Shown: one piece after another, positions 1 to 46,059 of the stretch | Layout of the letters: the number at the start of each line of letters is the position of its first letter | How positions within the stretch are numbered: the first letter of the stretch is position 1 | Position numbers and translations under genes: made by a program | Notes under the pieces: generated by a model | Seen by the model: the letters and a program-made list of their open reading frames with translations, nothing else | Told to the model about the DNA's origin: nothing | Databases searched by the model: none | Source of the DNA: Macrosoma leucophasiata | Lineage: Eukaryota > Arthropoda > Insecta > Lepidoptera > Hedylidae | Direction: 5' to 3' | Length of the DNA: 64,000 nt | Assembly (NCBI GenBank): GCA_036365455.1 | Contig: JAWQUS010000008.1 | Coordinates: forward strand, 10,709,501-10,773,500

Positions 1-3000
1 TTCCTTTCAATCTCATTCGGTTTTTGCAACTCTTTCGGCGAAATAATTTTAATTTCATCTTCCTCTTCTGATTTTTCTATTTTCATCATTTTTAACTCTT
101 CCGCTATTTGTGTTTGACTTACTTCTTCTGTCTTTTTTAAACGTGACTTCCTTTCCTTATTTTTTTTCTTGCTTCCCGCTTCATTTTTTTCTTGTTGTTT
201 ACGTAATTTTTCAGCTTCATCTTTGCTTCGGTCTGGGCTTTTTTTCTCTTCCTGTGTCTTCATTACTGATTCCATCTGTATTTTATCTACTTGTTCTTCT
301 TTAATACATGTTTGCTCTTTGATCAGTGTCGTTTCTTCTGCTTGATGTCTCGTACGTTGTTTCTCAGATTCTTCTTTCTTTTCTCCTGGTTCCACTTTTT
401 TTATTTCTGCTTCTGGTATACTCTTCCGTTGTTTCTCTTCCACGTCTTTTTCTTGTTTTATCAGCAAAGCGGCATCTTCTTGTTTTTTTTTGTCGGCTTT
501 ATCTAGCTTTTGTAACGGCAGTTCTTTTATTTCTACTTTCTCCTGTTGTAAGATAACATCGCTTTCTTTAAGAAGTTCTTTAGCTGCTTGATCTTTTTCT
601 TGTATTAAATAGTTTTCTTTCTCCATTTTTTTCTCTTCTGCTTCATACGTATCAAGCTGTTTTAGAGACTGATCTGTCTCGACCTTCTCTTGCTTCAAAA
701 TAGTTTTTCCTTTTTCAAGTTTCTCATTTTTTTTTTGGTCTATTAGAAATTCCTCAAGTTCTCGTGCTTTCTTCAAACGCAATTTCTCTTCCTGGCGTTC
801 TTTGTTTACTGATTTTGTTTCTTCCTGTTGCACCTGAAGCTTTTCTGCGTCATCTTTATCTTGTGCCGATAGAAGTAATTCGACTTCCATTTTTTTAGTG
901 ATTCTTTGTTCTGATTCTTCATTTTGCAATTTTTCTTTTCTTCGGCCTTCTAAATTCGTGACTTCTTCTATCACATTTGTTTTCCCTGCTTGATTTATCT
1001 CCTGCTGATCTATTATTTCACGGTTTTCTTCTTTTAAGCACTGTTTGTCTTCTTCTAGTTTTTTAATTTCTGTCTGGAGCAAATCCAGCTCTTCTTGTTG
1101 TCTCTGGGCAATATCCTTTATTTGCTTATCATGTAAGTTTTCAGTCTCCGTTTCCTTTTTGTCAATTGTATCTAGTTCTAGTTGTGTTTGCATTTTATTG
1201 TCATTGCCTTGTTCTTTTTGTAAGCTATCTTCTTCTTCAATTGTTATTTTTTCTGCTTCATCTTTTTGTTGCTTGAAATGCACTTCTTCCACTGTTATTT
1301 TCTTTTCTTTTTCAGGGACTTTATGTTGCTTTTCTAAGTGTGAGTCGACTTCTTGTTCTATATTCGTTTTTTTATCTGATTGCAGTGCTGTTTTCAATAC
1401 CAACTCCACGTCCACAAGCTTTTTGTTATCAGATTCCAATATTTTGTGCTGTTCAGAATTTTCTACCTCATCATTAACTTTTTCTAATTGTGTTACCTCT
1501 TCTTGTTTATTAATTTCCATTCGTTTTCTTTTTTTTTCTATTTTCTTTTGTTGTTCTTCACTCGGATAAGTTTCCTCTTTTTTAATTTTTGATTCTTCTG
1601 TTTGGTTTATTTCATGTTGTTTCAGACTTCTCTTCTGTTCAACACTTAGTTTCTCGCTTTCTTTATGCTCTTTAGCTTCTGTTTCTTCCATTCTATGCCT
1701 TTTCACTGATTCTTCATTAGCATATTTTTCTTCTTTTGTACATAATTCCTCTTCATTTTGCATATTTTCAGCTACGTCTTGTTCTCCTTGTTTTTGAGCT
1801 TTTTTCTCAATACTAACTTCCTTTACTTCCAGTATCTTGTCATCTGATTCAAGCATTTCTTGTTGTTTTTCTAATTCGATTTTTTCTTTAACGTTTTGCA
1901 CTAATAAATTAGCGGTTTCTTCGTCAGGTTGTTTCGGTAAAGCATCTTTTTTATATTTATCTTCAGGGATAGGTTCTTCAATTTTCTGTTGAATATGCCT
2001 CTTGTCAGGTTTTTCTTTGGCTTGTTGTGAGGCGATTATGTCTGTATCTTGTTTATTTGCGTCTTCACTTTCTTTTTCCTGCAATGGACATTCAGCGTTT
2101 CCTTTTTCTTTTGGGTTTACATCCTGCTGTTTATTTTTTTGTACTTGACATTGTTCGTCCCGTATACAATTTTGTTCTTCTTTAAGGATCTCCTTTTCAA
2201 CCCCTTGGTTATATTTCTGTTTCTGGAATGTGTCATCAAGGTCGTATGCTATTTCAGTTTTTATCATTTTTTGTTTATTTGAATAATTTTCTTCCTCTGC
2301 TTTAATTTCAGTTTCTTCCTTTTTCAATGTTTCTATTTCGACTCTCTCCTGATCTTTTCTATCAACTTTTTCAATGTAGTTTTCGTCTTGCCGTGCTTGT
2401 TGATTATTATCTAACAGTTCGTAATGTTTTTGAGTTTGCATTTTATCGGACTCTATTTTAATTTGGTCGATAGGAGTTTTATCCTTTTCTAACTCGCTTT
2501 CTGTAATTTCTAGAATTTGTTCCGTTGAAATTGCTGACAACTCTTTTAAATCTCTATCTTTAGATTCATTTATTACTTTTTTCGAAATCTCAGTGTCTTT
2601 TAAGATTTTGATACTATCTTGCTCTTTATTTTCAGTCTCTACAATTGCCACCTGATTTGATGTACCTTCTTTATCCATTATATATACTTCGAGTTGTTTT
2701 TTAGCATATTCAGAAGATTGTAATTCCACTTTTCCTTCCGCTTCATTTGTTGAAATTAATTGTTGCTGCTTCTCTATTTCAGTTTTTTCTTGCTTAAGAC
2801 ATACGATTTGTTGATCTTCGTCTTGTTTTGTCAAAACTTGTAATTTTTTCAGATCTTCCTCCTCTTGATTTGATCGTGTTTCATATTCTTCAGAGATATT
2901 GGTAGGAATGGCAGTTATTTCTCGCGGTTCTTGTAGCAACTCAATACTTTCCTGGTTTGATTCCGAAAGCATTTCTTCCTGGTGTTTTACCATTGCACCA

Positions 3001-4768
3001 TCTTCTGTCTGCCGAGCTTTCACAAGTTCACCAACGGATGTTAGTTCATGTTCCGCATAATCTACTCCTTGCGTTTCGTGCTGTGTTTCTGATATGTGTG
3101 AATCTATATTCTGGAGTTGAGGGGTTATAACAGTTTTGTATGAGCTATCCATTTTATCCTCTTGGTTTTGTTGCTTACTGGATATAATTTTTTTATCTTT
3201 CTGGTCCATGGTCTCATTGTCTTTAACTTTCTCTTGCTCTTGGTTAGAATCTTCATAAACTATTTCTTTCAAAACATCTTGAGATTGTATGTTTTCAATA
3301 GTTTCTGCTGTGTGAGATGAAGTCGATGGTGATTCTACTAAAGATGTGTTTTCTAGTAATATCATATTCTTTTTTCCATCTGCGAAACCTGAATCAACGT
3401 CTTGTAGCGATTGTTGATCTTTTTCAGTTTTAATATATTCCGACGCCAGTTCTTTATATATCTCTTCTTTGTTCAAGTCAATAATGGATTCAGTAGCTGT
3501 ATCCATAGTGTCGTTATTTGAATCACGCGTTTTCATATTTATGTCCTGTTCATCTAGTGTTAATTCTTTTTTTTCTTCTTCAACCCACGTTTTAGTAACT
3601 TTATCTTCTAGGTTTTGTCTTATCAAAGTCGTAGCCATTAAAATTGTGTCTGCAATATCTTTAAATATTGGAATTTTATCTTTAACGGCTAAAGTTGATT
3701 TTGATTCAATACTTACATTATTATTTTCAAGACATTGAAGAACATCGTTTATTTTGTCGGTAACAATTAAAGGCAAATCTTTTACGTTGGGTAAAACCAT
3801 CTCTATTAAATCAGTTTTAAATTGATTCAAAATGACTCTAGTAAAATCTGCGTCGCATGGAAGCCTGGCTGTTTTATCAAGATTGATATAAAATTTGATA
3901 TCTTCGAAATGATTCATGACATTACGTAGAGACTTGCTGAATAATTTCCAAACAATTTTATTTTGATGCTGAAATATAACGTTCATATTTTTTACGGATT
4001 TCAAAAAACACTCAGTTGGTTTTCCATAGTTATCGTGAATATAATGTTTTTGAATACTCGCTAAGGTACTTCTCATGTTTGACAGACTTCCATACATTGA
4101 ATGTACCGCTGTTATAATTATATCTTTAACATCAGATTCTATGCCACATATTTTTTCTATATCTTTATCCATAGAAAATATTTGGTCTTCCATCTGATTA
4201 AGTTGTTGTATTACTTCAATACCTTTATCAATCAGAGTTTGTGCACTGCCCATAAAGCATAGATTTAATAACTTCATAGCATCTTTCATATTATTAAATT
4301 TAGATATTATATCCAAAAGTTGTTTACTAGTTTTACTTTCTATAGCAGTCACATCATCCAGCAAGTTAATTGTTTTTTCCGTATCATGTGAACAATTCTG
4401 TAATATATTTACGGCGCTTATTTCTTTAGGAGCAGTAGTAATATCTTGTGAATGAATCATGTTTGATACGAGGAGCTGTAGGGTAGCACAGGATTCTTTA
4501 AGGAACTCCATGGGACTATCTTCATTTATTTGTAACTGGACACTCCTCACTGTGCACTCTAAGTCTTCTAGAGTTTCATTGAGAGTGTCATTTATTGATC
4601 CATCATAATCGCGTTTCAGTTTGATGATTACTGTTTGGATCTCATCAAGTGTATTTTGTAAAGATTCGGTATCATCTGGTGGTTTATCAGTTGAAATATT
4701 TATCTTAACATTTACTTCTTGTAACAGATTTTGTAATGTTTCCATAGGTTTATCTTCCTGGATGTAAT
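1..4768 (-). CDS. Large exon: helical module followed by Glu/Lys/Gln-rich coiled-coil or PEVK-like region; continues off left edge
   Basis: Reading the minus strand from the acceptor TTTTGTTATAG (exon starts at 4768) gives one open frame of about 1588 codons to base 1, with no stop found. It enters in phase 1, matching the donor of the last array exon. The first about 390 codons (4768 to about 3600) are a mixed helical segment, starting DYIQEDKPMETLQNLL, like the helical modules elsewhere in the gene. The remainder, to base 1, is dominated by Glu, Lys and Gln with runs such as QEEKLRLKKARELEEF, few aromatics and few prolines. This suggests long charged helices or an elastic spacer. No Ig or catalytic domain is seen. 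The plus-strand reading frames here are Ser/Phe/Leu-rich shadows of this composition. Confidence 0.85.
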
Positions 4769-7222: not shown

Positions 7223-7633
7223 CTTGCACTTCTTGACCTAAAATACTTTTTATTTCAGTTTCCACAGAAATTATCGCTAAATCTTCTTGCAAATGTTTGA
7301 AAGCTTCACAGAAATGTTGAACTGCATTATGATCAATAGATGGATCAATTTCTTCCGCTTTACACAAATCTTGAACTTGAATTGTTGATAGAGCATACTG
7401 TAATGTTTGAACCAGTTTAGCCTGTTCTTTGGAACTTTCAATGGTTGCCATTGAATCGGCAATTTCGGTTGGTATAAGTTTTTCAGAAGATGCTATATTT
7501 TCTCGTAACTCTTTGGCTATTGAAATAGATTTATTCAATTCAACCACATTGACGACTTGTGAGATTTGTTCTATAAATTCAACCACTTGTTTAGAAGTGA
7601 GATCGTCTATGTGCTCGATCATTTTCTCTTTTT
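7223..7633 (-). CDS. Array exon 17 (last, most diverged)
   Basis: This is a 411-bp exon with acceptor TTTTCAG and donor CAAG before GTATAC, in phase 1-1. It keeps EHIDDLTSKQVVEFIEQISQ but differs over its second half (IPTEIADSMATIESSKEQ, KHLQEDLAIISVETE) and ends EVQG instead of EAESG. It is the 3'-most copy and precedes the Glu/Lys-rich exon. Its divergence suggests it escapes homogenisation. Confidence 0.88.
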
Positions 7634-7797
7634 CTGAAAACATAACTAATTGAAATCAATTAAATCTATCATACCCAGATTAATCGTAGCGGCATATTTA
7701 TCTCTATCATGCTTTTATTATCAAGGATGAGTGCGCTCAATCAAACAAGATAATAAAGCTCAGTACCTAAATTGAACGACCAATATTGTGTACATAC

Positions 7798-8208
7798 CTC
7801 TTTCATGTTGTGTTATAGTGACTGGAGCCTCAACCTCGACGGAAATTAAAACAAGGTCTTCTTGCAGACTTTGCACAGCTTGACAGATATGTTGGATAGC
7901 ATCATGATTAATAGTCGGAACGAGCTCTTCGGCTTTATGCAATTCCTGAACTTGCACTGTTGATAGCTCATGTTGCAATATTTGAACTAATTTAGCTTGT
8001 TCCTTGGCACTTTCGAAGACTTGCATAGAATCTACATTCTCAGTTGCTTTAAGTTTTTCAGAAGCTGCCATGTTTTCTTGTAATTCTTTGGCGATAGCGA
8101 TAGATTTTTTCAATTCATCTACCTTGATAACTTGTGCGATTTGTTCTATTACTTCCACGACTTGTTTTGACGTGAGATCATCTATGTGCTCCATCATTTT
8201 CTCTTTTT
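7798..8208 (-). CDS. Array exon 16
   Basis: This 411-bp phase 1-1 exon has distinctive residues VIKVDEL, VFESAKEQ, PTINHDAIQH and LQEDLVLISVEVE. It ends TITQHERG in place of TIKEAESG. The intron after it is longer (164 bp) than the roughly 99 bp of other units. Confidence 0.9.
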
Positions 8209-8306
8209 CTGAAAACAAATTAATTGTAATAAACGAAATCTATCGTACCCAGGTTTATAAACGTGACAGAATCAGCTTAACTGGAAAATTTATATTGTGT
8301 ACATAC

Positions 8307-8717
8307 CGCTTTCAGCTTCTTTTATAGTGACTGGAGCTTCAACTTCGACGACAATTAAAGCAAGGTTATCTTGCAGACTTTGGACAGCTTGAAAGATATG
8401 TTGGATAGCAGCATGATCAATAGTCGGAACGAGCTCTTCGGCTTTATGCAAATCTTGAACTTGCACTGTTGATAGCTCATGCTGTAATGTTTGCACTAAT
8501 TGAGCTTGTTCCTTGAAACTTTCGAGGACTTGCATAGAATCTACATTCTCAGTTGCTTTAAGTTTTTCAGAAGCTGCTATGTTTTCTTGTAATTCTTTGG
8601 CGATAAAAATAGATTTTTTCAATTCATCTACCTTGATAACTTGTGAGATTTGTTCTATTACTTCAACGACTTGTTTTGACGTGAGATCATCTAGGTGCTC
8701 CATCATTTTCTCTTTTT
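8307..8717 (-). CDS. Array exon 15
   Basis: This 411-bp phase 1-1 exon carries KKSIFIAKEL, ESFKEQAQLVQT, HAAIQHIFQ and ALIVVEVE. It is moderately diverged from the core and forms a gradient with exons 16 and 17. Confidence 0.92.
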
Positions 8718-8815
8718 CTGAAAACAAATTAATTGAAATAAACAAAATATATCGTACCCAGGTTTATGAACGTGAATGAATCAGCTTAACTGGAAAATTT
8801 ATATTGTGTACATAC

Positions 8816-9226
8816 CGCTTTCAGCTTCTTTTATAGTGACTGGAGCTTCAACTTCGACGGCAATTAAAGCTAGGTTATCTTGCAGACTTTGCACAGCTTG
8901 ACAGATATGTTGGATAGCATCATGATCAATAGTCGGAACGAGCTCTTCGGCTTTATGCAATTCCTGAACTTGCACTGTTGATAGCTCATGTTGCAATATT
9001 TGAACTAATTTAGCTTGTTCCTTGGAACTTTCGAGGACTTGCATAGAATCTGCATTCTCAGTTGCTTTAAGTTTTTCAGAAGCTGCCATGTTTCCTTGTA
9101 ATTCTTTGGCGATAGCAATAGATTTTTTCAATTCATCTACCTTGACAACTTGTGAGATTTGTTCTATTACTTCAACGACTTGTTTTGACGTGAGATCATC
9201 TAGGTGCTCCATCATTTTCTCTTTTT
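8816..9226 (-). CDS. Array exon 14
   Basis: This 411-bp phase 1-1 exon has core-type sequence with LQGNMAAS and ATENADS. The LQGN variant is shared with array exon 11. Confidence 0.93.
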
Positions 9227-9324
9227 CTGAAAACAAATTAATTGAAATAAACGAAATATATCGTACCCAGGTAAATAAACGTGACAGAATCAGCTTAACT
9301 GGAAAATGTTTATTGTGTACGTAC

Positions 9325-9735
9325 CGCTTTCAGCTTCTTTTATAGTGACTGGAGCTTCAACTTCGACGGCAATTAAAGCTAGGTTATCTTGCAGACTTTG
9401 CACAGCTTGACAGATATGTTGGATAGCATCATGATCAATAGTCGGAACGAGCTCTTCAGCTTTATGCAATTCCTGAATTTGCACTGTTGATAGCTCATGT
9501 TGCAATATTTGAACTAATTTAGCTTGTTCCTTGGAACTTTCGAGGACTTGCATAGAATCTGCATTCTCAGTTGGTTTAAGTTTTTCAGAAGCTGCCATGT
9601 TTTCATGTAATTCTTTGGCGATAGCGATAGATTTTTTTAATTCATCTACCTTGACAACTTGTGAGATTTGTTCTATTACTTCAACGACTTGTTTTGACGT
9701 GAGATCATCTAGGTGCTCCATCATTTTCTCTTTTT
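9325..9735 (-). CDS. Array exon 13
   Basis: This 411-bp phase 1-1 exon has core-type sequence with LHENMAAS, LKPTENADS and VQIQEL. Its donor reads GTACGTAC rather than GTATGTAC, a variant shared with exon 12. Confidence 0.93.
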
Positions 9736-9833
9736 CTGAAAACAAATTAATTGAAATAAACGAAATATATCGTACCCAGGTAAATAAACGTGACAGAATC
9801 AGCTTAACTGGAAAATGTTTATTGTGTACGTAC

Positions 9834-10244
9834 CGCTTTCAGCTTCTTTGATAGTGACTGGAGCTTCAACTTCGACGGCAATTAAAGCTAGGTTATCTTG
9901 CAGACTTTGCACAGCTTGACAGATATGTTGGATAGCATCATGATCAATAGTCGGAACGAGCTCTTCAGCTTTATGCAATTCCTGAATTTGCACTGTTGAT
10001 AGCTCATGTTGCAATATTTGAACTAATTTAGCTTGTTCCAGGGAACTTTCGAGGACTTGCATAGAATCTGCATTCTCAGTTGCTTTTAGTTTTTCAGAAG
10101 CTGCCATATTTTCTTGTAATTCTTTGGCGATAGCAATAGATTTTTTCAATTCATCTACCTTGACAACTTGTGAGATTTGTTCTATTACTTCAACGACTTG
10201 TTTTGACGTGAGATCATCTATGTGCTCCATCATTTTCTCTTTTT
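9834..10244 (-). CDS. Array exon 12
   Basis: This 411-bp phase 1-1 exon has EHIDD, ESSLEQ and VQIQEL. It has the same GTACGTAC donor variant as exon 13, suggesting these two neighbours share recent ancestry or conversion. Confidence 0.93.
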
Positions 10245-10342
10245 CTGAAAACAAATTAATTGAAATCAACGAAATATATCCTACCCAGGTTTATAAACGT
10301 GACAGAATCAGCTTAACTGGAAAATTTATATTGTGTACATAC

Positions 10343-10753
10343 CGCTTTCAGCTTCTTTTATAGTGACTGGAGCTTGAACTTCTACGGCAATTAAAGCTAG
10401 GTTATCTTGCAGACTTTGCACAGCTTGACAGATATGTTGGATAGCATCATGATCAATAGTCGGAACGAGCTCTTCGGCTTTATGCAATTCCTGAACTTGC
10501 ACTGTTGATAGCTCATGTTGCAATATTTGAACTAATTTAGCTTGTTCCAGGGAACTTTCGAGGACTTGCATAGAATCTGCATTCTCAGTTGCTTTAAGTT
10601 TTTCAGAAGCTGCCATGTTTCCTTGTAATTCTTTGGCGATAGCAATAGATTTTTTCAATTCATCTACCTTGACAACTTGTGAGATTTGTTCTATTACTTC
10701 AACGACTTGTTTTGACGTGAGATCATCTAGGTGCTCCATCATTTTCTCTTTTT
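10343..10753 (-). CDS. Array exon 11
   Basis: This 411-bp phase 1-1 exon has LQGNMAAS, ESSLEQ and the unique AVEVQAPV (Gln for Glu). Confidence 0.93.
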
Positions 10754-10852
10754 CTGAAAACAAAAGTAATTGAAATCAACGAAATATATCGTATCCAGGT
10801 TTATAAACGTGACAGAATCAGCTTTACTGGAAAATTAATATTAAGTACATAC

Positions 10853-11263
10853 CGCTTTCAGCTTCTTTTATAGTGACTGGTGCTTCAACTTCGACGGCAA
10901 TTAAAGCTAGGTTATCTTGCAGACTTTGCACAGCTTGACAGATATGTTGGATAGCATCATGATCAATAGTCGGAACGAGCTCTTCAGCTTTATGCAATTC
11001 TTGAACTTGCACTGTTGATAGCTCATGTTGCAATATTTGAACTAATTTAGCTTGTTCCTTGGAACTTTCGAGGACTTGCATAGAATCTACATTCTCAGTT
11101 GCTTTAAGTTTTTCAGAAGCTGCCATGTTTTCTTGTAATTCTTTGGCGATAGCAATAGATTTTTTCAATTCATCTACCTTGACAACTTGTGAGATTTGTT
11201 CTATTACTTCAACGACTTGTTTTGACGTGAGATCATCTAGGTGCTCCATCATTTTCTCTTTTT
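10853..11263 (-). CDS. Array exon 10
   Basis: This 411-bp phase 1-1 exon has core-type sequence with EQISQVV and VQVQEL. The intron after it begins GTATGTACTTAATATTAA, a variant also found after array exon 1. Confidence 0.93.
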
Positions 11264-11362
11264 CTGAAAACAAAAGTAATTGAAATCAACGAAATATATC
11301 GTACCCAGGTTTATAAACGTGACAGAATCAGCTTAACTGGAAAATGTATATTGTGTACATAC

Positions 11363-11773
11363 CGCTTTCAGCTTCTTTTATAGTGACTGGAGCTTCAACT
11401 TCGACGGCAATTAAAGCTAGGTTATCTTGCAGACTTTGCACAGCTTGACAGATATGTTGGATAGCATCATGATCAATAGTCGGAACGAGCTCTTCGGCTT
11501 TATGCAATTCCTGAATTTGCACTGTTGATAGCTCATGTTGCAATATTTGAACTAATTTAGCTTGTTCCTTGGAACTTTCGAGGACTTGCATAGAATCTGC
11601 ATTCTCAGTTGCTTTTAGTTTTTCAGAAACTGCCATATTTTCTTGTAATTCTTTGGCGATAGCGATAGATTTTTTCAATGCATCTACCTTGACAACTTGT
11701 GCGATTTGTTCTATTACTTCAACGACTTGTTTTGACGTGAGATCATCTATGTGCTCCATCATTTTCTCTTTTT
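11363..11773 (-). CDS. Array exon 9, same protein as exon 6
   Basis: This 411-bp phase 1-1 exon has EHIDD, VDALKKS, MAVSEKL and VQIQEL. The encoded residues are identical to array exon 6, three units (1530 bp) away, and the DNA looks identical by eye. Confidence 0.93.
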
Positions 11774-11872
11774 CTGAAAACAAAAGTAATTGAAGTCAAC
11801 GAAATATATCGTACCCAGGTTTATAAACGTGACAGAATCAGCTTAACTGGAAAATGTGTATTGTGTACATAC

Positions 11873-12283
11873 CGCTTTCAGCTTCTTTTATAGTGACTGG
11901 AGCTTCAACTTCGACGGCAATTAAAGCTAGGTTATCTTGCAGACTTTGCACAGCTTGACAGATATGTTGGATAGCATCATGATCAATAGTCGGAACGAGC
12001 TCTTCAGCTTTATGCAATTCTTGAATTTGCACTGTTGATAGCTCATGTTGCAATATTTGAACTAATTTAGCTTGTTCCTTGGAACTTTCGAGGACTTGCA
12101 TAGAATCTACATTCTCAGTTGCTTTAAGTTTTTCAGAGGCTGCCATGTTTTCTTGTAATTCTTTGGCGATAGCGATAGATTTTTTCAATTCATCTACCTT
12201 GACAACTTGTGCGATTTGTTCTATTACTTCAACGACTTGTTTTGACGTGAGATCATCTAGGTGCTCCATCATTTTCTCTTTTT
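11873..12283 (-). CDS. Array exon 8
   Basis: This 411-bp phase 1-1 exon has core sequence with EHLDD, EQIAQVV, ATENVDS and VQIQEL. It differs from exon 7 mainly at QIQ versus HVQ. Confidence 0.93.
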
Positions 12284-12382
12284 CTGAAAACAAAAGTAAT
12301 TGAAATCAACGAAATATATCGTACCCAGGTTTATAAACGTGACAGAATCAGCTTAACTGGAAAATGTATATTGTGTACATAC

Positions 12383-12793
12383 CGCTTTCAGCTTCTTTTA
12401 TAGTGACTGGAGCTTCAACTTCGACGGCAATTAAAGCTAGGTTATCTTGCAGACTTTGCACAGCTTGACAGATATGTTGGATAGCATCATGATCAATAGT
12501 CGGAACGAGCTCTTCGGCTTTATGCAATTCTTGAACATGCACTGTTGATAGCTCATGTTGCAATATTTGAACTAATTTAGCTTGTTCCTTGGAACTTTCG
12601 AGGACTTGCATAGAATCTACATTCTCAGTTGCTTTAAGTTTTTCAGAAGCTGCCATGTTTTCTTGTAATTCTTTGGCGATAGCGATAGATTTTTTCAATT
12701 CATCTACCTTGACAACTTGTGCGATTTGTTCTATTACTTCAACGACTTGTTTTGACGTGAGATCATCTAGGTGCTCCATCATTTTCTCTTTTT
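12383..12793 (-). CDS. Array exon 7
   Basis: This 411-bp phase 1-1 exon has core sequence with the unique STVHVQEL (His). Confidence 0.93.
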
Positions 12794-12892
12794 CTGAAAA
12801 CAAAAGTAATTGAAATCAACGAAATATATCGTACCCAGGTTTATAAACGTGACAGAATCAGCTTAACTGGAAAATGTATATTGTGTACATAC

Positions 12893-13303
12893 CGCTTTCA
12901 GCTTCTTTTATAGTGACTGGAGCTTCAACTTCGACGGCAATTAAAGCTAGGTTATCTTGCAGACTTTGCACAGCTTGACAGATATGTTGGATAGCATCAT
13001 GATCAATAGTCGGAACGAGCTCTTCGGCTTTATGCAATTCCTGAATTTGCACTGTTGATAGCTCATGTTGCAATATTTGAACTAATTTAGCTTGTTCCTT
13101 GGAACTTTCGAGGACTTGCATAGAATCTGCATTCTCAGTTGCTTTTAGTTTTTCAGAAACTGCCATATTTTCTTGTAATTCTTTGGCGATAGCGATAGAT
13201 TTTTTCAATGCATCTACCTTGACAACTTGTGCGATTTGTTCTATTACTTCAACGACTTGTTTTGACGTGAGATCATCTATGTGCTCCATCATTTTCTCTT
13301 TTT
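12893..13303 (-). CDS. Array exon 6, same protein as exon 9
   Basis: This 411-bp phase 1-1 exon is identical in translation to exon 9 (EHIDD, VDALKKS, MAVSEKL). The intron just upstream differs from that of exon 9 near the acceptor, so the identity covers the exon and downstream part of the unit rather than both introns. Confidence 0.93.
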
Positions 13304-13402
13304 CTGAAAACAAAAGTAATATAAGCCAACGAAATATATCGTACCCAGGTTTATAAACGTGACAGAATCAGCTTAACTGGAAAATGTATATTGTGTACAT
13401 AC

Positions 13403-13813
13403 CGCTTTCAGCTTCTTTTATAGTGACTGGAGCTTCAACTTCGACGGCAATTAAAGCTAGGCTATCTTGCAGACTTTGCACAGCTTGACAGATATGTTGG
13501 ATAGCATCATGATCAATAGTCGGAACGAGCTCTTCGGCTTTATGCAATTCCTGAATTTGCACTGTTGATAGCTCATGTTGCAATATTTGAACTAATTTAG
13601 CTTGTTCCAGGGAACTTTCGAGGACTTGCATAGAATCTGCATTCTCAGTTGCTTTTAGTTTTTCAGAAGCTGCCATATTTTCTTGTAATTCTTTGGCGAT
13701 AGCCATAGATTTTTTCAATGCATCTACCTTGACAACTTGTGCGATTTGTTCTATTACGACGACGACTTGTTTTGACGTGAGATCATCTAGGTGCTCCATC
13801 ATTTTCTCTTTTT
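13403..13813 (-). CDS. Array exon 5, first copy after the retrotransposon in transcription order
   Basis: This 411-bp phase 1-1 exon has KQVVVVIEQ, VDALKKSMAIA, ESSLEQ and LQDSLALIA. Its upstream intron carries the DIRS-like insertion. KQVVVVIEQ is shared with exon 2. Confidence 0.92.
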
Positions 13814-13913
13814 CTGAAAACAAATTAATTGAAATCAACAAAATATATCGTACCCAGGTTTATAAACATGATAGAATCAGCTTTACTGGAAAATTTATAT
13901 TATTTATTCGGTA

Positions 13914-13938
13914 TCAATATCCGGAATCCATCTTGAGT
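13914..13938 (+). repeat. Left inverted terminal repeat of the DIRS-like element
   Basis: The 25 bases here are the exact reverse complement of 18235-18259. The shared core is GGAATCCATCTTGAGT. Confidence 0.85.
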
Positions 13939-14106
13939 CAAGCACCTGTCTCTTTACCGTATTTAGTCAGCGTTTCCCTCCGACAGTGGCGCCCTCTGTT
14001 GGTCTAGATTAGGTACTTTCGGGCGCACGAGCTCCGGGTGATGTCTTATATTATAGCGTCAAAAATTGCACGTTTATAGTATATTTTTGTTTAAGTTTAT
14101 TATAAC

Positions 14107-15295
14107 GTGTATCTCTCCGATACAATGGAGGATCATATTGATGTAGATAGTGGAAAGTTACCAACTCCTAGAAAACGTAGTCGTTCTAAATCAGTTTCGG
14201 ATAGTAATTCCTCTTTAAGGGATTGTGGTTCCAGCCTGACAAGCCATAGCAAGAGGAGGAAAGAGGAACAAACTGTGAGTTATGCACATTTTGAATTTTT
14301 TATCCCAACAAGTGGCGTTTTTAACGGAACTGATTTCGAAAAGAGATCTACCTACAAATTCAATTTCTGACAACGTTCAAAAGGCGGCTACGTCTTTGCA
14401 AAATTCTTATGACACCCAACCATACTTTAAAGTCTGCTCAGCTTAACCTATCAGAATTAAAAACTACCGTCAAAGATCCTTTATATGTGTGCGCTAATGA
14501 AAATTATCTTCATAAGTTAAAAACTATTCAACGGTTTAATAGCGATGATTGGTATGATGTTTGATTTTCTGAAGTGCAAAAGAAATATTTGGCTACCCCC
14601 GGTTTTGTGGAGTTGAATGTTAATGATTCTTTGAAACGATTTGAGGCAGCCATGTTGCGCGATGATCCTCGTTCGTATTTACTCGAGCGTTACTTTGCGG
14701 GGTTAACTAATGCTATGCTTGCCCAGAAGGACGAGTTACATAAAACATTACAAACATTGATAGATTGGTCAAATGATTCAAAACAAATATTAACTCCAAA
14801 AACATTATTCGATAAAATAGAATCATTATTTTGTAAAGATTCCAATTATGGCAAAGTGTCGGATGATTTGTTGCAAATGGTGTGTGGGCGACGAGCTGAT
14901 TTTGTTAGTATGCGTCGGGATGCACTGCTCCGGCAAATACAGGAAGAATTTCATCGGAACGTTTTATTTAAAATACCCCCAGTACAGAATTTCTGTTCGA
15001 TGACGAAGCAGTTCAAGCCTACCTTCAAAAAATTGGTGGGGTGGATAAACTTATTGCCTCGCCACAATCAAATCAGCAGAATCAGTGGCAGTCTAAAGAT
15101 TATTTTTATCGTAACCAAAAGCCATCTACTAGCAAACAAACAGGCGATAAGCCCTTTCGTTGGCACACTATCGCCAAGAGAGGAAAACAAACCTCCCGAC
15201 CACACAACCAAATTAATAAAGATACGACAGGACAAAACAAGCACAAGAGAAAGAAATCAAACTTCAATTCTTTTAAAAACAAGCATCACGATTGA
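14107..15295 (+). pseudogene. Gag-like region of the DIRS-like element, broken by frameshifts
   Basis: A basic, Ser-rich start (PTPRKRSRSKSVSD) is open at 14107-14370. Sensible sequence then continues in other frames: KRDLPTNSISDNVQKA near 14340, a segment ending in TGA near 14562, one frame from 14574 to about 14990, then a different frame at about 15000-15295 ending in a Lys/Asn/Gln-rich tail. At least three frame changes or stops are needed, so no intact gag is encoded. The assignment rests on position before the RT and on composition; no zinc knuckle is seen. Confidence 0.6.
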
Positions 15296-15474
15296 CTGTC
15301 AATCATTTCACGGCGGTTGTCTAAAACAATTTCAGTGTTTGGAGCAATTTCGGGGCACCAAATCATATCTGCCAACTATTAAACGGAGCTCGCATTCCCT
15401 TCAAACTGAAGCCGCCGCTTATTTTTCCAAATTCAGTAGTTCTCCAAAAGTACAGAACCAAAACCTCTTCCAAT

Positions 15475-17121
15475 ATGACTGCTCAAATTCAAACTATGTT
15501 AGAATCGGGTATACTCGAGGACGTAGAACCGAGTCCGAGCTACCTTTCAACATTCTTTCTGGTACGCAAACAGGACGGCAATTACCGCCCCATTTTCAAT
15601 TTGAAGAAATTAAACGAATTTGTGGTCACAAAGCCATTCCAGTTATTCAGACATTTTCGAGTACAACATCAGGACTGGATGGCAAAATTGGATTTGAGCC
15701 AAGCATACTTCCATTTACCAATAGCTCAGCACCACCGCCGGTTCCTGAGGCTGAGTTATCATCACGATCCCAACCAGCACAAACTGCTCCAGATGACCTG
15801 CTTGCCCTTCGGTTTGTCGTCGGCACCGAGAACATTTGCCACGCTAACCAACTGGGTAGCAGAGTTCCTCAGGAGTCACGGCATCAGATGCGTAGTATAC
15901 CTAGACGACTTTTTACTAGCAGACCAGTCGATGCACGATCTACACGACGACATAGCCTTTACAATCAAGATTATGAAATTATTGGGATGGACAGTCAATT
16001 TAGACAAGTCTGTGCTGGCTCCGACACAATGCCTCGAGTTTCTCGGCATAACTTGGGACACCAAACGCAACGCAACGTCCCTGTCGGAGCCGAAGTGCCT
16101 ATCGCTACGCAAAGCACTTCAGCTACAGCTCGAAAAAGGCAAATGGTCCCTCAAACAGTATCAAAATCAAATGGGGAGACTGAACTTTGCTGCATACGTT
16201 ACTCCGAGAGGTCGGCTCCACTGTCGAACACTGCAATACTTCAGTCGACAGCTGCCAAAAGACCATCCATACCACCAAGTGAGTCTTCCCCAGCAAGTGA
16301 TGGTAGATATGGAATGGTGGAGAATAACTATTGGAGAAACAACTCCGATTCATATGAGGGAAATCACACATCTGTTAACGACCGACGCCTCCGATATCGG
16401 CTGGGGAGCTCACCATGGAGACAAAAATATTATAGGGACATGGACAAAACGGCAACTCTCTTGGCACGCAAACAGAAAAGAGATGTTCGCCGTTTACGCT
16501 TCCATTCTACAGGAGCAGCATCACCTTCAAAGTGCACAAATAATTCTTTAGACAGACAATCGAACTGTAGTGTCCTACATAAACAAAGAAGGTGGCACGA
16601 AATCGAGAAAACTTCTGGATCAAACTCCTCAACTTCTTACAATCCTGGACAGATTGAACATACACCTTCTGGCTCACTATCTGCCGGGCAGGTTCAATGT
16701 AGAAGTAGATGCTCTGTATCGTCAAAAGATTTGTCCAGAGTGGCACCTGACATCAACCGCGACCTCGAACATATTTCAGATGTTGGGCACTCCGGAAATC
16801 GACTTGTTTGCGTCGAGAACAGCTCACGTGACGTCGAGATATGTAACGTTGGACACAGCGGACCAACAAGCGGAACATCACAATGCATTCTGTCATCAGT
16901 GGCAATACCGACTAGCATGGTTGTTCCCGCCTCCAAACCTCATTCCCAGAGTACTAAATCACCTGAACCAAGCAACGGGGTCGTACATATTGATTGCTCC
17001 GAAATGGAACAAAGGCTTCTGGCGCGCAGATGTTCAACGTCAAGCTCTGCGCCTTCCATATCTCATTCCACATCTGGAACAAGTTTTGATAGACACGTCA
17101 ACGGGAACGCACCCGTTTTGA
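15475..17121 (+). pseudogene. Reverse transcriptase-RNase H ORF of the DIRS-like element with one internal TAG
   Basis: The frame runs from 15475 to the stop at 17119-17121, interrupted only by TAG at 16549-16551. RT motifs are clear: YRPIFNLKKLNEF, MAKLDLSQAYFHLPI, LPFGLSSAPRTF and the YLDD catalytic motif. RNase H follows with TTDASDIGWGAH and NRKEMFAVYASI, then the stop, then TDNRTVVSYINKEGG and LPGRFNVEVDALYR. The stop falls just before the TDN motif. The last third (GTPEIDLFASRTAHVT, FPPPNLIPRVLNHL) resembles the region between RNase H and recombinase in DIRS elements, sometimes described as methyltransferase-like. The original start may lie upstream of 15475. Confidence 0.85.
16549..16551 (+). 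other. In-frame TAG stop within the RNase H domain
   Basis: The frame before it (YASILQEQHHLQSAQIIL) and after it (TDNRTVVSYINKEGG) is the same and continues the RNase H fold. A point change or readthrough is therefore the only barrier in this ORF. Confidence 0.8.
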
Positions 17122-18047
17122 TGTCAGGATGGCGAGATTCTACGATCAACACCTATAAACCAGCATGGAATAGGTGGAGAAAGTGGTGTGCATCTCATTC
17201 AATAGATTTTAAATATCCTAGGGCCGACCAAATAGCTCGTTATCTTGCGCATTTACATTCTGATATTGGCCTTGCATATAAAACTATTTTGGTGCATAAA
17301 TCTGTAATTTCTTCGTTCACTCATTTATGTTCTAATATTGATTTATCATCCAACTTTTTTGTTAAGCATATGTTGAAAGCTATATCGGTTGCCCGTGATA
17401 AACGTATAAAAGCACCTATCTGGAATCCGAAGCTGTTACTAGATTACATCAGTGCACATGAACCTGACAAGAATAATATTTATCAGGTATCAAGGCTTAC
17501 AGCAACATTATTATTACTAGCTTCAGGCCGCAGGGTTCATGATCTCACTTTATTAAGGGTAGATAAAGATAGTTTAATAGATGAAGGTGATCATATAATA
17601 TTATGGCCAGCTTTTGGCTCAAAAACGGACACTATCAATCAACGACAATCGGGCTGGAGAATTAAACAACATCCAGATATAAATTTGAATATAGTCTTCT
17701 GGATTAGACAACTTCTAAAATTGTCTTTAAATCGTAGAATTGATATTAATAATTTATTTATAACCACTAGAGGTGTGATCAAACCAGCTTCTAGAACTAT
17801 AATTGGCGGTTGGATAAAATGTCTTTTAAAAGATGCGGGCATTGAAGACACGCCAGGTTCAGTGAGGTCAGCAGTAGCTTCACTGAATTGGGTGGAAAAA
17901 TTTCCTATAGATAAGATTCTTGAAACAGGAAACTGGAAGGCCAAACATACTTTCCAGAATTATTATAAAAAAGAAATAATCAATCATAATTTTCATAAAC
18001 CTGGGCAATCAGTATCGCTTTCTAATTATTTTGATCCTATACATTGA
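17121..18047 (+). CDS. Tyrosine recombinase of the DIRS-like element
   Basis: This is a 308-codon frame whose ATG overlaps the RT stop in the sequence TGATG. It begins MSGWRDSTINTYKPAWNRW, a typical core-binding N-terminus of DIRS recombinases. Catalytic-domain signatures are ASGRRVHDLTLL (first Arg), GSVRSAVASLNW (second Arg), ETGNWKAKHTF (Trp) and NYYKKE (Tyr nucleophile candidate). It would cut and join circular cDNA during integration. The frame is uninterrupted. It also stays open upstream to 14574, overlapping the whole RT frame. Confidence 0.85.
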   Translation: MSGWRDSTINTYKPAWNRWRKWCASHSIDFKYPRADQIARYLAHLHSDIGLAYKTILVHKSVISSFTHLCSNIDLSSNFFVKHMLKAISVARDKRIKAPIWNPKLLLDYISAHEPDKNNIYQVSRLTATLLLLASGRRVHDLTLLRVDKDSLIDEGDHIILWPAFGSKTDTINQRQSGWRIKQHPDINLNIVFWIRQLLKLSLNRRIDINNLFITTRGVIKPASRTIIGGWIKCLLKDAGIEDTPGSVRSAVASLNWVEKFPIDKILETGNWKAKHTFQNYYKKEIINHNFHKPGQSVSLSNYFDPIH

Positions 18048-18234
18048 AATAGATTAAAAATAATTATTGATATAACGAAATAATGAGTACATTGATAATT
18101 TAATTTCTTTTGATTAAAGTAAACTGCTTAGTTCACATCCACATCCTATTTTTTCTGTGAATCATCTTACCTTTACACAATATAACGTCATCAGTGGTAC
18201 TACTTTACGGGCACCAGGTGACAATAAACACATC

Positions 18235-18259
18235 ACTCAAGATGGATTCCGGATATTGA
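18235..18259 (+). repeat. Right inverted terminal repeat of the DIRS-like element
   Basis: Exact reverse complement of 13914-13938. Confidence 0.85.
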
Positions 18260-18378
18260 ATGAAGAAATAATAGGCAAGTTTTATTTGATGGTAAGACTC
18301 TCTACTATTTATAATATTATTTATATTGGATGGATTCCGGATATTGAATGAAGAAATAATAGGCAAGTTTTATTTGAT
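18241..18378 (+). repeat. 50-bp direct duplication and palindrome at the right end of the DIRS-like element
   Basis: Positions 18241-18290 and 18329-18378 are the same 50 bases, 88 bp apart, each starting GATGGATTCCGGATATTGAA. Just after them, 18384-18396 and 18399-18411 form a 13-bp perfect hairpin with a 2-base loop. Extra terminal copies are plausible by-products of the circular-intermediate chemistry of DIRS elements, but the cause here is unknown. Confidence 0.75.
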
Positions 18379-18439
18379 TTTAAAACTCTCTATTATAAAT
18401 AATAGAGAGTTGATGGTAAAATTCTCTATGTGTACATAC

Positions 18440-18850
18440 CGCTTTCAGCTTCTTTTATAGTGACTGGAGCTTCAACTTCGACGGCAATTAAAGCTAGGTT
18501 ATCTTGCAGACTTTGCACAGCTTGACAGATATGTTGGATAGCATCATGATCAATAGCCGGAACGAGCTCTTCGGCTTTATGCAATTCCTGAACTTGCACT
18601 GTTGATAGCTCATGTTGCAATATTTGAACTAATTTAGCTTGTTCCTTGACACTTTCGAGGACTTGCATAGAATCTACATTCTCAGTTGCTTTAAGTTTTT
18701 CAGAAGCTGCTATGTTTTCTTGTAATTCTTTGGCGATAGCAATAGATTTTTTCAATTCATTTACCTTGACAACTTGTGCGATTTGTTCTATTACTTCAAC
18801 GACTTGTTTTGACGTGAGATCATCTAGGTGCTCCATCATTTTCTCTTTTT
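18440..18850 (-). CDS. Array exon 4, just upstream of the retrotransposon
   Basis: This 411-bp phase 1-1 exon has VVKVNEL, NIAASEKL, ESVKEQ and LVPAIDHD. Its donor keeps GTATGTACACA, after which the retrotransposon begins about 11 bp into the intron. Confidence 0.92.
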
Positions 18851-18949
18851 CTGAAAACAAAAGTAATTGAAATAAGCGAAATATATCGTATCCAAGTTTA
18901 TAAACGTGACAGAATCAGCTTAACTGGAAAATTTATATTGTGTACATAC

Positions 18950-19360
18950 CGCTTTCAGCTTCTTTTATAGTGACTGGTGCTTCAACTTCGACGGCAATTA
19001 AAGCTAGGTTATCTTGCAGACTTTGCACAGCTTGACAGATATGTTGGATAGCATCATGATCAATAGTCGGAACGAGCTCTTCGGCTTTATGCAATTCTTG
19101 AACTTGCACTGTTGATAGCTCATGTTGCAATATTTGAACTAATTTAGCTTGTTCCTTGGAACTTTCGAGGACTTGCATAGAATCTACATTCTCAGTTGCT
19201 TTAAGTTTTTCAGAAACTGCCATGTTTTCTTGTAATTCTTTGGCGATAGCGATAGATTTTTTTAATTCATCTACCTTGACAACTTGTGCGATTTGTTCTA
19301 TTACTTCAACGACTTGTTTTGACGTGAGATCATCTATGTGCTCCATCATTTTCTCTTTTT
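18950..19360 (-). CDS. Array exon 3
   Basis: This 411-bp phase 1-1 exon has core-type sequence with EHIDD, MAVSEKL and ATENVDS. Its acceptor is TTTTATTTTCAG. Confidence 0.93.
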
Positions 19361-19459
19361 CTGAAAATAAAAGTAATTGAAATCAACGTAATCTATCGTA
19401 CCCAGGTTTACAAACGTGACAGAATCAGCTTAACTGGAAAAATTATATTGTGTACATAC

Positions 19460-19864
19460 CGCTTTCAGCTTCTTTTATAGTGACTGGAGCTTCAACTTCG
19501 ACGTCAATTAAAGCAAGGTTATCTTGCAGACTTTGGACAGCTTGACAGATATGTTGGATAGCAACATGATCAATAGTCGGAACTTCGGCTTTATGCAAAT
19601 CTTGAACTTGCACTGTTGATAGCTCATGCTGTAATTTTTGCACTAATTTAGCTTGTTCCTTGGAACTTTCGAGGACTTGCATAGAATCTACATTCTCAGT
19701 TGCTTTAAGTTTTTCAGTAGCTGCTATGTTTTCTTGTAATTCTTTGGCGATAGCGATAGATTTTTTCAATGCATCTACCTTGACAACTTGTGCGATTTGT
19801 TCTATTACGACGACGACTTGTTTTGACGTGAGATCATCTAGGTGCTCCATCATTTTCTCTTTTT
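19460..19864 (-). CDS. Array exon 2, shortened by two codons
   Basis: This exon is 405 bp because it lacks two codons in HKAE-VPTIDH (EELVPT in the others); the frame is preserved. It also has VVVVIEQ, NIAATEKL, KLVQKLQ, TIDHVAIQH and ALIDVEVE, making it one of the more diverged copies. Confidence 0.92.
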
Positions 19865-19963
19865 CTGAAAACGAAAGTAATTGAAATCAACGAAATATAT
19901 CGTATCCAGGTTTATAAACGTGACAGAATCAGCTTTAATGGAAAATTAATATTAAGTACATAC

Positions 19964-20374
19964 CGCTTTCAGCTTTTTTTATAGTGACTGGTGCTTCAAC
20001 TTCGACGGCAATTAAAGCTAGGTTATCTTGCAGACTTTGCACAGCTTGACAGATATGTTGGATAGCATCATGATCAATAGTCGGAACGAGCTCTTCAGCT
20101 TTATGCAATTCTTGAACTTGCACTGTTGATAGCTCATGTTGCAATATTTGAACTAATTTAGCTTGTTCCTTGGAACTTTCGAGGACTTGCATAGAATCTA
20201 CATTCTCAGTTGCTTTAAGTTTTTCAGAAGCTGCCATGTTTTCTTGTAATTCTTTGGCGATAGCGATAGATTTTTTCAGTTCATCTACCTTGACAACTTG
20301 TGCGATTTGTTCTATTACTTCAACGACTTGTTTTGACGTGAGATCATCTATGTGCTCCACCATTTTCTCTTTTT
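19964..20374 (-). CDS. Array exon 1 (first intact copy)
   Basis: This 411-bp phase 1-1 exon has EKEKMVEHIDD and ends TIKKAESG where others have TIKEAESG. The acceptor is CTTTGTTTTCAG. Unlike exon 17 it is close to the core sequence, so divergence is not symmetric at the two array ends. Confidence 0.92.
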
Positions 20375-21930: not shown

Positions 21931-22097
21931 TGAAGCGTTTAAAACGAACTTAAAAATTAACAAAACAATTTTTAAAGCTAACTTAGCCACGAGTAAAGCA
22001 TACAGTCTTGTTAATAAAAGAGTTCGTTATATACATGGCAGGTTAATATATAATTAAAGATTGTTATAATGAGTTTTTTATTAAATGTCATTATTAC

Positions 22098-22433
22098 CGA
22101 ATGAATTACTTGGTAGTGGCAAATTTCCGGATACAACTAATTCTGATTTTTCTTCGTCTACATCATTGATGCATAAATGTGTTAACATTATTGGTATATC
22201 ACGAACAATTATATTTTCAATAACCAGTGTGCCTTCAGATTGCATTGGTGTGCCTTTTGAAATTGAGGAATTTGTAACACCAATCTCTGACAATTGTGCT
22301 CCTTCAACTTCGCTAACACTTTCGTTTTCTACATAATCACTGTCGTTCCTTGTAGATGCCTGATTTGTTTTACGGGGGGTTTCGACATCAGTGGTATCTA
22401 TTTGATTATACCTTTCTTCTTCAATTTTTTGGC
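22098..22433 (-). CDS. Probable acidic linker exon
   Basis: An open minus-strand frame runs from about 22545 to a stop at 22081. With acceptor TTGCTTCAG (exon starts 22433) and donor TCG before GTAATAAT (ends 22098) it is 112 codons, phase 1-1, and fits its neighbours in frame. The stronger-looking acceptors upstream would enter in phase 2 and break the frame. The peptide (EEERYNQIDTTDVETPRK, SDYVENESVSEVEG, NDVDEEKSELVVS) is acidic and without a known domain. Alternatively it is a terminal exon, since an in-frame TAA overlapping AATAAA follows the donor. Confidence 0.5.
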
Positions 22434-25633: not shown

Positions 25634-26197
25634 CCATTGAATCATATCCGACGACCTTTGATGATTCTGTAGATGGGGGCTCCATTGTCTCTGTAGGTTT
25701 ATCTAATAATGTTTCTTCAACAATGTGAGGAGATTTTGCTATTGTCAGAATTCCTTCTTTGTCAGGTGTCCGGGATGGTATAATCAGCTGTTCTGACGAT
25801 GTTATTCCATAGTTCAAATTCAAGGATTCTGATGGTGCTTCGAGTGCAACATGCATACTTGTTATTGCAACTAAATCAGCTTGTAATAATGCTACTACTT
25901 TCAATATACGTTGATATGCATTCTCGTTGAGACTAGGTGCTAGTTCTTGAGCGTTTTCAAATGATTGTACCTGGAGAGTAGATAAAGATCTTCGTAACTT
26001 TTCTACTAATCTCTCCTGTTCTGCATCAGATTGTTCATTAGAAGCTAAATTTGACATCGCTATGTTATCACGCAGTTCTCGGGCAATATTTACGGTCTCC
26101 TTTAAATCATCAATTTTTAAAACGGCTGTAATTTCTTCAACTATTTCTATTGTTTCTATGTATTGATCAATATGTTTTATTATTGCCTCTGAATTAT
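25634..26197 (-). CDS. Diverged module exon with proline/serine/threonine tail
   Basis: This is a 188-codon phase 1-1 exon, with acceptor TTAATTTCAG at its 5' end and donor ATGG before GTGAGT. The first about 125 residues align with the array module: IKHIDQYIETIEIVEEITAV, IDDLKETVNIARELRDNIA, LVEKLRRSLSTLQVQSF and ILKVVALLQADLVAITS match the corresponding array helices. It then carries a unique tail (TPDKEGILTIAKSPH, PTETMEPPSTESSK). It is a strong candidate for a relative of the unit that was amplified downstream. Confidence 0.85.
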
Positions 26198-28614: not shown

Positions 28615-28971
28615 CTTCAATAGGATTTTGGTTTAGGAGTGTCATCAACTGATAGTTTGTTAAAAACAGTTTCTTTATTTGCTGAATTTCAAAAGTAGTT
28701 TTTCCTTCCGAATATTTTTCTGTATTCAACCAATCAAATTTTGACAAAATTTCTTTCAAATGAAGAATTTGTTTGTTTTTCATATCTAATACTTTAGGTT
28801 TATCTTGATCTTCAGCTTCTAATATCAACGTTTTTTTTAACTCCTTTGCAATGACGATAATTGTGTCGATGTCAACATCGCAGAATAAATAAGACATAGC
28901 GAATAATTCTTTTTCTTCATTAATAAGACGGTCAAGAGCATTTTCCAGAGAGTCAATATTAGCATTGATAT
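28615..28971 (-). CDS. Helical linker exon, 119 codons
   Basis: A phase 1-1 exon with acceptor TTTATTTTAG (starts 28971) and donor GAAG before GTAATATG. The peptide starts DINANIDSLENALDRLINEE and continues DTIIVIAKELKKTLILEAED, a match to the IAIAKELQENM helix of the array modules. It therefore looks like another diverged module, shorter than 137 residues. Confidence 0.8.
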
Positions 28972-29064
28972 CTAAAATAAATAGCATATAAAGGAATAAT
29001 AACAAGAAGAAACAGTTAATCGTTCAAAAGCTTTTTTTTTGTTACAAAGATTAATGAAACTCAC

Positions 29065-44660: not shown

Positions 44661-44695
44661 TCTGGAACTCTATCACCAAAAAATAGTAATATATA

Positions 44696-45925: not shown

Positions 45926-46059
45926 TATTATGATCATCTTTTTTTAAAGTATCGCTCAAATATTTAAATAATACGTGAAAAACCGGCCAAATGTGAGTTG
46001 AACTCGAGTACGCACGGTTCCGTATACAATAAAACTGAAAAATAGAGTAAGATCGCAGA

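What the first reader, a model, noticed from the sequence alone, without database searches (positions are those of the whole stretch)
7223..20374. 17-copy tandem exon array encoding a 137-residue helical module
Seen directly: 16 exons of exactly 411 bp and one of 405 bp, each phase 1-1, with matching splice sites and about 99-bp introns at a 509-510 bp period. Coding changes are few among central copies. Phase symmetry means any number can be included without frame loss, so the locus could tune protein length by splicing or by copy number. I know of no described stretchin/titin spring built this way, so the array may be a new length-encoding module in insect muscle.
Basis: partly seen in the sequence, partly recalled or inferred. 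Interest (0 to 1): 0.88.

Follow-up and report, generated by a model that had tools for sequence, protein, structure and literature searches.

The report
Expandable seventeen-exon array in stretchin
In this butterfly or moth genome, the gene for the giant muscle-type protein stretchin holds 17 tandem copies of one exon, each predicted to fold into a four-helix bundle, and because gene models of other Lepidoptera hold from none to 18 related units, the array likely sets the length of part of the protein by copy number.

Summary
Fourteen of the 16 introns inside the array are 98-99 bp; one is 164 bp, and one is 4,626 bp because a DIRS-like retroelement sits in it. The gene is the lepidopteran stretchin (Strn-Mlck type) orthologue. 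The module is a rod unit found 0-4 times, diverged, in 33 of 40 lepidopteran models. Separately homogenised arrays occur in Papilio machaon (13), Battus (18), Aricia (6) and Choristoneura (4). Different paralogous modules were amplified: C-type here and in Choristoneura, A-type in Aricia. AlphaFold2 gives a helical bundle (pLDDT 83). The same gene in Drosophila carries a different, 65-residue array, and predicted isoforms differ by whole units, so the principle has a precedent. Expression, splice choice, copy variation between individuals, and any mechanical role are not shown. Recent changes inside the array look nearly neutral. Verdict: real, a new variant of a known kind, interesting mainly because the expansion recurred.

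The parts
7223..20374 (-). array of 17 tandem phase 1-1 exons; module of 137 residues (135 in copy 2); 2,327 residues in all
19964..20374 (-). module exon 1 (411 bp)
19460..19864 (-). module exon 2 (405 bp)
18950..19360 (-). module exon 3
18440..18850 (-). module exon 4; its downstream intron (4,626 bp) holds the retroelement
13403..13813 (-). module exon 5
12893..13303 (-). module exon 6 (matches exon 9 over its whole length, part of a 598-bp exact repeat)
12383..12793 (-). module exon 7
11873..12283 (-). module exon 8 (the copy folded)
11363..11773 (-). module exon 9
10853..11263 (-). module exon 10
10343..10753 (-). module exon 11
9834..10244 (-). module exon 12
9325..9735 (-). module exon 13
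8816..9226 (-). module exon 14
8307..8717 (-). module exon 15
7798..8208 (-). module exon 16
7223..7633 (-). module exon 17, the diverged last copy (73-76% to the others)
25634..26197 (-). single A-type module exon (188 residues, phase 1-1), by profile and tree the orthologue of the first module of other Lepidoptera
29065..34677 (-). large exon (1,871 residues, phase 1-1): Ig domains followed by helical rod sequence
28615..28971 (-). 119-residue rod exon, phase 1-1
3..4768 (-). exon after the array: conserved C-terminal domain, then a Glu/Lys-rich region; runs off the window
13902..18429 (+). DIRS-like retroelement inside intron 4 (reverse transcriptase ORF 15325-16551; weak tyrosine-recombinase match in ORF 14565-18047); end points approximate, from the alignment of intron 4 with intron 5

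Best explanation
The locus is the lepidopteran stretchin (Strn-Mlck-type) gene, in which one helical rod exon stands in 17 tandem phase 1-1 copies that are likely spliced together into a rod of 17 predicted four-helix bundles (2,327 residues). The amplified unit is C-type, the type that stands next to the C-terminal domain in moths, while a single A-type module stays in its own exon upstream; this is shown by profile scores and a tree. The number of units is inferred to change by unequal crossing-over and gene conversion: a 598-bp exact repeat links units 6-7 with units 9-10. Because the neighbouring rod and C-terminal exons that I could place are phase 1 as well, any copy number would keep the frame. 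The protein is inferred to work as a thick-filament-associated tether whose rod length, and whose reserve of bundles that could unfold under load, scales with copy number. Muscle location, expression in this species and force response are inferred from Drosophila stretchin and from talin, not shown.
For: Exact exon anatomy; stops in 17 of 17 introns if retained, so a coding transcript requires splicing. Orthology: the Ig and linker region is 78-86% identical to 40 lepidopteran proteins, one of them named Stretchin-Mlck isoform A (P0116), and 58-73% to the listed fly, ant, wasp, cockroach and caddisfly proteins, many of which carry kinase domains. The exon order along the window matches them, and the rod exons that I could place are phase 1-1. 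Copy number: 0-4 modules in 33 of 40 models, 5-18 in 7 of 40. Within-array protein identity: window copies 1-16 94%, Papilio 98%, Battus 95%, Aricia 85%, Choristoneura 91%; between these arrays 19-36%. Window copies score best as C-type in 17 of 17, Choristoneura in 4 of 4; Aricia as A-type in 7 of 7. One isoform pair each of Manduca and Choristoneura differs by a stretch that begins within about a residue of a module start. Constraint: dN/dS 0.30 against copy 17 and 0.45 among copies 1-16. Fold: pLDDT 83, pTM 0.74.
Against: No RNA or protein data for this species. The 64 distinct derived states in 15 copies are 44 nonsynonymous, 20 synonymous and 0 stops, against a neutral expectation of 45.7, 15.4 and 2.9 (P for 0 stops 0.052; P for 44 or fewer nonsynonymous 0.36), so recent constraint inside the array is hardly visible. 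Most of the 40 relatives' models manage with 1-4 modules and one (Dendrolimus) shows none, so a long array is not needed for stretchin function in Lepidoptera. Structural matches are generic.
Confidence: 0.6

Rival explanations
1. The array is a selectively near-neutral by-product of unequal crossing-over in a repeat-prone gene: extra bundles are tolerated because exons are phase-symmetric, and number carries no function.
For: Nonsynonymous to synonymous counts of recent changes match neutral expectation (44:20 against 45.7:15.4). Copy numbers range from 0 to 18 among 40 models. The part between rod and C-terminal domain also carries other lineage-specific repeats in several Lepidoptera.
Against: No stop or frameshift in 17 copies and all splice sites intact; dN/dS 0.30 against copy 17; related modules amplified in at least three lineages.
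Confidence: 0.3
2. Alternative splicing, not genomic copy number, is the working dial: muscles include different numbers of the 17 modules.
For: Phase 1-1 exons; ten Drosophila isoform pairs chosen for comparison differ by whole 65-residue units in the same gene; Strn-Mlck is spliced in a muscle-type-specific way under Bru1 in Drosophila (PMC11081514, passages; PMC8742874, passages). One Manduca and one Choristoneura isoform pair differ from a module start onward.
Against: Near-identical exons and introns give no visible differential splice signals; short-read gene models are unreliable in repeats; the Bru1-controlled event concerns isoform R and an alternative 3' end, not a repeat array; no transcript data for this species.
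Confidence: 0.25
3. The array is an assembly artefact (over-expanded tandem repeat).
For: Copies are up to 100% identical in sequence (exons 6 and 9), and two Papilio machaon models give 2 and 13 copies, so counts depend on the assembly or the individual.
Against: 43 private states in 15 copies, longest exact repeat 598 bp, retroelement in one intron only, diverged last copy.
Confidence: 0.05

Closest known systems
Drosophila Stretchin-Mlck repeat region (65-residue units)
   Same: Same gene and same side of the rod; tandem units that differ in number between the predicted isoforms compared; copy-number variation in a PEVK and SAIDE repeat region of the protein reported for one D. melanogaster strain (PMC13322080, passages).
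   Different: Unit is 65 residues and Lys/Glu-rich; the module profile finds no match above 25 bits in the 80 non-lepidopteran proteins.
Stretchin-klp, the Ig-pair isoform on Drosophila flight-muscle thick filaments
   Same: Product of the same gene; string of repeated units along the thick filament (PMC7391215, PMC10573858, PMC11509062, passages).
   Different: Its repeats are Ig pairs with linkers, as described in those passages, not helical modules of the kind described here.
Nebulin triplicate region and titin segmental-duplication region
   Same: Sarcomeric giant genes whose internal repeated blocks vary in copy number (PMC9109913 and PMC9142044, abstracts).
   Different: Vertebrate genes; in nebulin a block of eight exons in three copies; no relation of the domains is known to me.
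Insect titin Sallimus PEVK exons
   Same: Exon inclusion goes with spring length and sarcomere length (PMC12063666, passages).
   Different: PEVK-rich sequence in large exons (31 and 32), not a tandem array of predicted folded bundles.
Talin rod bundles (R1-R13)
   Different: No sequence relation found; Foldseek finds nothing at E 0.001 or better.

Membership tests
Stretchin / Strn-Mlck orthologue | I-set Ig domains followed by the conserved post-Ig linker and helical rod | tested here: met
   Pfam I-set in 29051-34720 and 35586-36110; 78-86% identity to 40 lepidopteran and 58-73% to other listed insect proteins over the 381-residue region; colinear exons
Stretchin / Strn-Mlck orthologue | C-terminal myosin light chain kinase domain in long isoforms | not testable with these tools
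   the gene runs off the window at position 3; kinase Pfam accessions (PF00069, PF07714) stand in many fly and hymenopteran rows but in none of its 40 lepidopteran rows
Stretchin / Strn-Mlck orthologue | A-band location in muscle | not testable with these tools
   described for Drosophila stretchin-klp only (passages)
Lepidopteran stretchin helical module (defined here) | sequence match to modules of other Lepidoptera between rod exon and C-terminal domain | tested here: met
Titin-type PEVK spring | Pro/Glu/Val/Lys-rich disordered sequence | tested here: not met
   array has 1.5% Pro and 23% Glu+Lys and is predicted folded
Drosophila Strn-Mlck 65-residue array | 65-residue Lys/Glu-rich unit | tested here: not met
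   unit is 137 residues; no module match above 25 bits in the Drosophila proteins listed
Talin rod domain | talin-type helical-bundle fold | tested here: inconclusive
Talin rod domain | sequence similarity to talin chains of known structure | tested here: not met
   profile A3 finds 0 PDB sequences at E up to 10
Copy-number-variable exon array (nebulin, titin type) | unit number differs between alleles of one species | tested here: inconclusive
   two Papilio machaon models hold 2 and 13 modules, but they come from different contigs, by length, and probably different assemblies; one haplotype only for the window

The most novel reading that the evidence does not exclude
Stretchin in Lepidoptera carries a genetic length dial: lineages have repeatedly and independently amplified one of several paralogous four-helix-bundle exons, so that the count of force-unfoldable bundles in a thick-filament tether is written in exon copy number and can be reset by unequal crossing-over between generations and by exon choice between muscles.
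Probability: 0.3. Interest if true: 0.8.

Novelty: new variant of a known kind. Interest (0 to 1): 0.6.

Why it matters
What sets filament and sarcomere length is a long-standing question. In Drosophila, loss of Strn-Mlck lets flight-muscle sarcomeres overgrow and then hypercontract (PMC6005683, passages). A gene in which relatives differ by whole, countable rod units is a natural experiment: module number per allele can be set against sarcomere length, thick-filament length and wing-beat physiology across Lepidoptera. The array also suggests how a module predicted to be folded, and not only a disordered PEVK segment, can be multiplied inside a giant muscle-type protein.

Tried and rejected
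Own-genome search (genome search) was tried seven times; each time the machine was busy and nothing was answered, so paralogues elsewhere in the genome were not checked. Pfam gives no family at its cut-off for the module and PDB sequences give none. A profile iterated five times drifted into generic helical repeats, with weak hits of about 8-32 bits in other insects such as Periplaneta, so a very distant relation of the module to helical parts of other insects' stretchins is not excluded; counts therefore come from the curated profile. The default HMMER filters had lost several species (for example Epargyreus, Parnassius, Bicyclus, Colias, Leptidea, Pieris brassicae); they reappeared with the filters off. 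A search with a six-row module alignment, which admits only proteins of about 75-240 residues, found one protein (P0220), so no own-species transcript was found. A 550-residue piece of the rod exon gave a low-confidence, mostly helical model (pLDDT 56, pTM 0.31) and is not used. Talin rod domains appear among many unrelated bundles in VIA and Foldseek; I do not claim a relation. Papilio and Battus arrays cannot be typed: B and C profiles score alike. Placement of the window beside the skipper Epargyreus rests on support 0.80. The ten Drosophila isoform pairs were picked by me because their lengths differ by multiples of 65; other pairs differ otherwise (D. hydei 7,088 and 7,172 residues differ by 84), and these were not aligned. 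Literature searches, with papers listed of papers found: 20 of 12,362; 15 of 529; 20 of 21; 15 of 181; 15 of 829; 15 of 6,900; 8 of 14; 8 of 34; 10 of 8,262; no listed title or abstract start describes a module array in lepidopteran stretchin. In one search the word start 'stretchin' also caught 'stretching', and none of the 10 listed papers held Strn-Mlck. Champagne 2000 and Patel & Saide 2005 were seen only as references in other papers. One further paper, on lepidopteran projectin (PMC3835035, abstract and outline), concerns another gene and is not used.
Full report
What is there. On the minus strand, 20374 to 7223, stand 17 exons, 16 of 411 bp and one of 405 bp, each starting after TTTTCAG and ending in G|GT, phase 1-1, without a stop. 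Of the 16 introns between them 14 are 98 or 99 bp, one is 164 bp and one 4,626 bp. The long one holds a DIRS-like retroelement on the plus strand: reverse transcriptase in 15325-16551, a weak tyrosine-recombinase match at the end of ORF 14565-18047, inserted about 10 bp inside an otherwise normal intron. If any of the 17 downstream introns were retained, translation would meet a stop (17 of 17). Copies 1-16 are 92-100% identical, copy 17 73-76%. Introns differ by 0.076 and synonymous sites by 0.065 on average, so exon and intron were copied or converted together and recently. A 598-bp exact repeat ties units 6-7 to 9-10, which fits duplication of a three-unit block or conversion.

Which gene. 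The 1,871-residue exon at 29065-34677 carries I-set Ig domains followed by helical sequence. A 381-residue region of it matches 40 lepidopteran proteins at 78-86% and the other listed insect proteins at 58-73%. The Danaus plexippus match is named Stretchin-Mlck isoform A, and several hymenopteran and fly matches carry kinase domains or the name myosin light chain kinase; many others are named titin or unc-89. Lepidopteran proteins map along the window in order: N-terminal Ig exons from about 49 kb down to 35.6 kb, the large exon, a 119-residue exon, a single module exon at 25634-26197, the array, and a C-terminal domain from 4768 on. From the large exon onward, the exon borders that I could place are phase 1. 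The exon or exons that link 25634 to 20374 were not resolved: an open stretch at 22081-22545 has a phase 1 donor but no convincing acceptor.

The module elsewhere. A curated profile was run without speed filters on the 219 proteins returned by the first two searches. Among the 120 rows listed (301 were found; the other 181 were not seen) 40 are lepidopteran models, of 36 species. Their counts between rod exon and C-terminal domain (score over 20 bits, over 60 profile positions) are: none in 1, one in 10, two in 8, three in 9, four in 5, five in 3, seven in 2, thirteen in 1, eighteen in 1. No hit above 25 bits appears in the 80 other proteins of that list; the non-lepidopteran proteins of the first search were not part of that statement. 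Tandem near-identical arrays stand in Papilio machaon (13 units, period 164), Battus philenor (18, period 161), Aricia agestis (6, period 187) and Choristoneura (4, period 121). The seven units of Tuta are diverged. A second Papilio machaon model has 2 units, so counts depend on assembly or individual. Within-array identity is 85-98%, between arrays 19-36%.

How the arrays arose. In the tree of 118 modules the 17 window copies form one clade (support 1.0), and Papilio (1.0), Battus (0.99), Aricia (0.98) and Choristoneura (0.997) each form their own. Profiles of three module types, built from other Lepidoptera, score the window copies as C-type in 17 of 17 and Choristoneura in 4 of 4, Aricia as A-type in 7 of 7; Papilio and Battus are undecided between B and C. 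The window keeps its A-type module separately. So different paralogous modules were multiplied in different lineages, which an old shared array with concerted evolution does not easily predict. Deep nodes of the tree are weak.

Selection. Pairwise dN/dS is 0.45 among copies 1-16 and 0.30 against copy 17. But the 64 distinct derived states in 15 copies (copy 2 left out for its deletion, copy 17 for its divergence) are 44 nonsynonymous, 20 synonymous and no stop, against 45.7, 15.4 and 2.9 expected for a transition weight of two. Singletons are 31:12 and shared states 13:8. Long-term constraint on the module is thus visible; constraint on each of the recent copies is not.

How it likely works. 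Drosophila stretchin-klp, the Ig isoform, lies along the thick filament (PMC7391215, PMC11509062, passages), and flies mutant for Strn-Mlck overgrow and then hypercontract their sarcomeres (PMC6005683, passages). I infer that the lepidopteran long form is a tether with a rod of serial bundles between an Ig region and a charged C-terminal part, and that copy number sets rod length. Talin bundles of 120-170 residues give steps of about 30-40 nm when they unfold, in force groups from under 8 to over 21 pN (PMC4941051, passages); if the modules behave alike, 17 of them would hold a reserve of roughly 0.5-0.7 micrometre. This last step is analogy. Length tuning by splicing has a model in the same gene: in D. 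biarmipes, D. albomicans and D. hydei the predicted isoforms of ten pairs that I picked for lengths differing by multiples of 65 differ by inserted or missing stretches of 65 to 390 residues, all multiples of 65, inside a 65-residue array (10 of 10 pairs). Other isoform pairs were not aligned, and gene models in repeats are uncertain.

What is new. Copy-variable blocks in giant muscle genes are known (nebulin, titin: PMC9109913, PMC9142044, abstracts), and copy-number variation in the Strn-Mlck repeat region of a D. melanogaster strain is in print (PMC13322080, passages). The lepidopteran helical-module array, its recurrence and its use of different paralogous modules I did not find described in the searches named under Tried and rejected. 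I file it as a new variant of a known kind.

Noticed in passing
window 13902-18429: DIRS-like tyrosine-recombinase retroelement in intron 4 of the array, reading opposite to the gene, with reverse transcriptase and a weak recombinase match; the insertion left the intron's donor and acceptor in place.
   Followed up: partly
window 44621-45928: Mariner-type element: Transposase_1 match in ORF 44621-45709 and terminal inverted repeats 44693-44721 / 45900-45928, 93% complementary, in the region of the N-terminal Ig exons.
   Followed up: no
window 3-4768, minus strand: After the conserved C-terminal domain the open frame turns Glu/Lys/Gln-rich, with Pro+Glu+Val+Lys rising to 40-47% per 250 residues, and runs off the window.
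   Followed up: no
proteins P0108, P0120, P0123, P0125, P0126: Several other Lepidoptera carry other tandem repeats (units of about 96, 38 or 23 residues) between rod and C-terminal domain, as if this part of stretchin were generally prone to repeat growth; their relation to the module was not tested beyond the profile.
   Followed up: partly
window 54222-54280, 55051-55081, 62325-62360: ACAG / TGTC microsatellite tracts on the far side of the window.
   Followed up: no
window 46124-46237: Short inverted repeat, arms of 25 nt, 64 nt apart.
   Followed up: no
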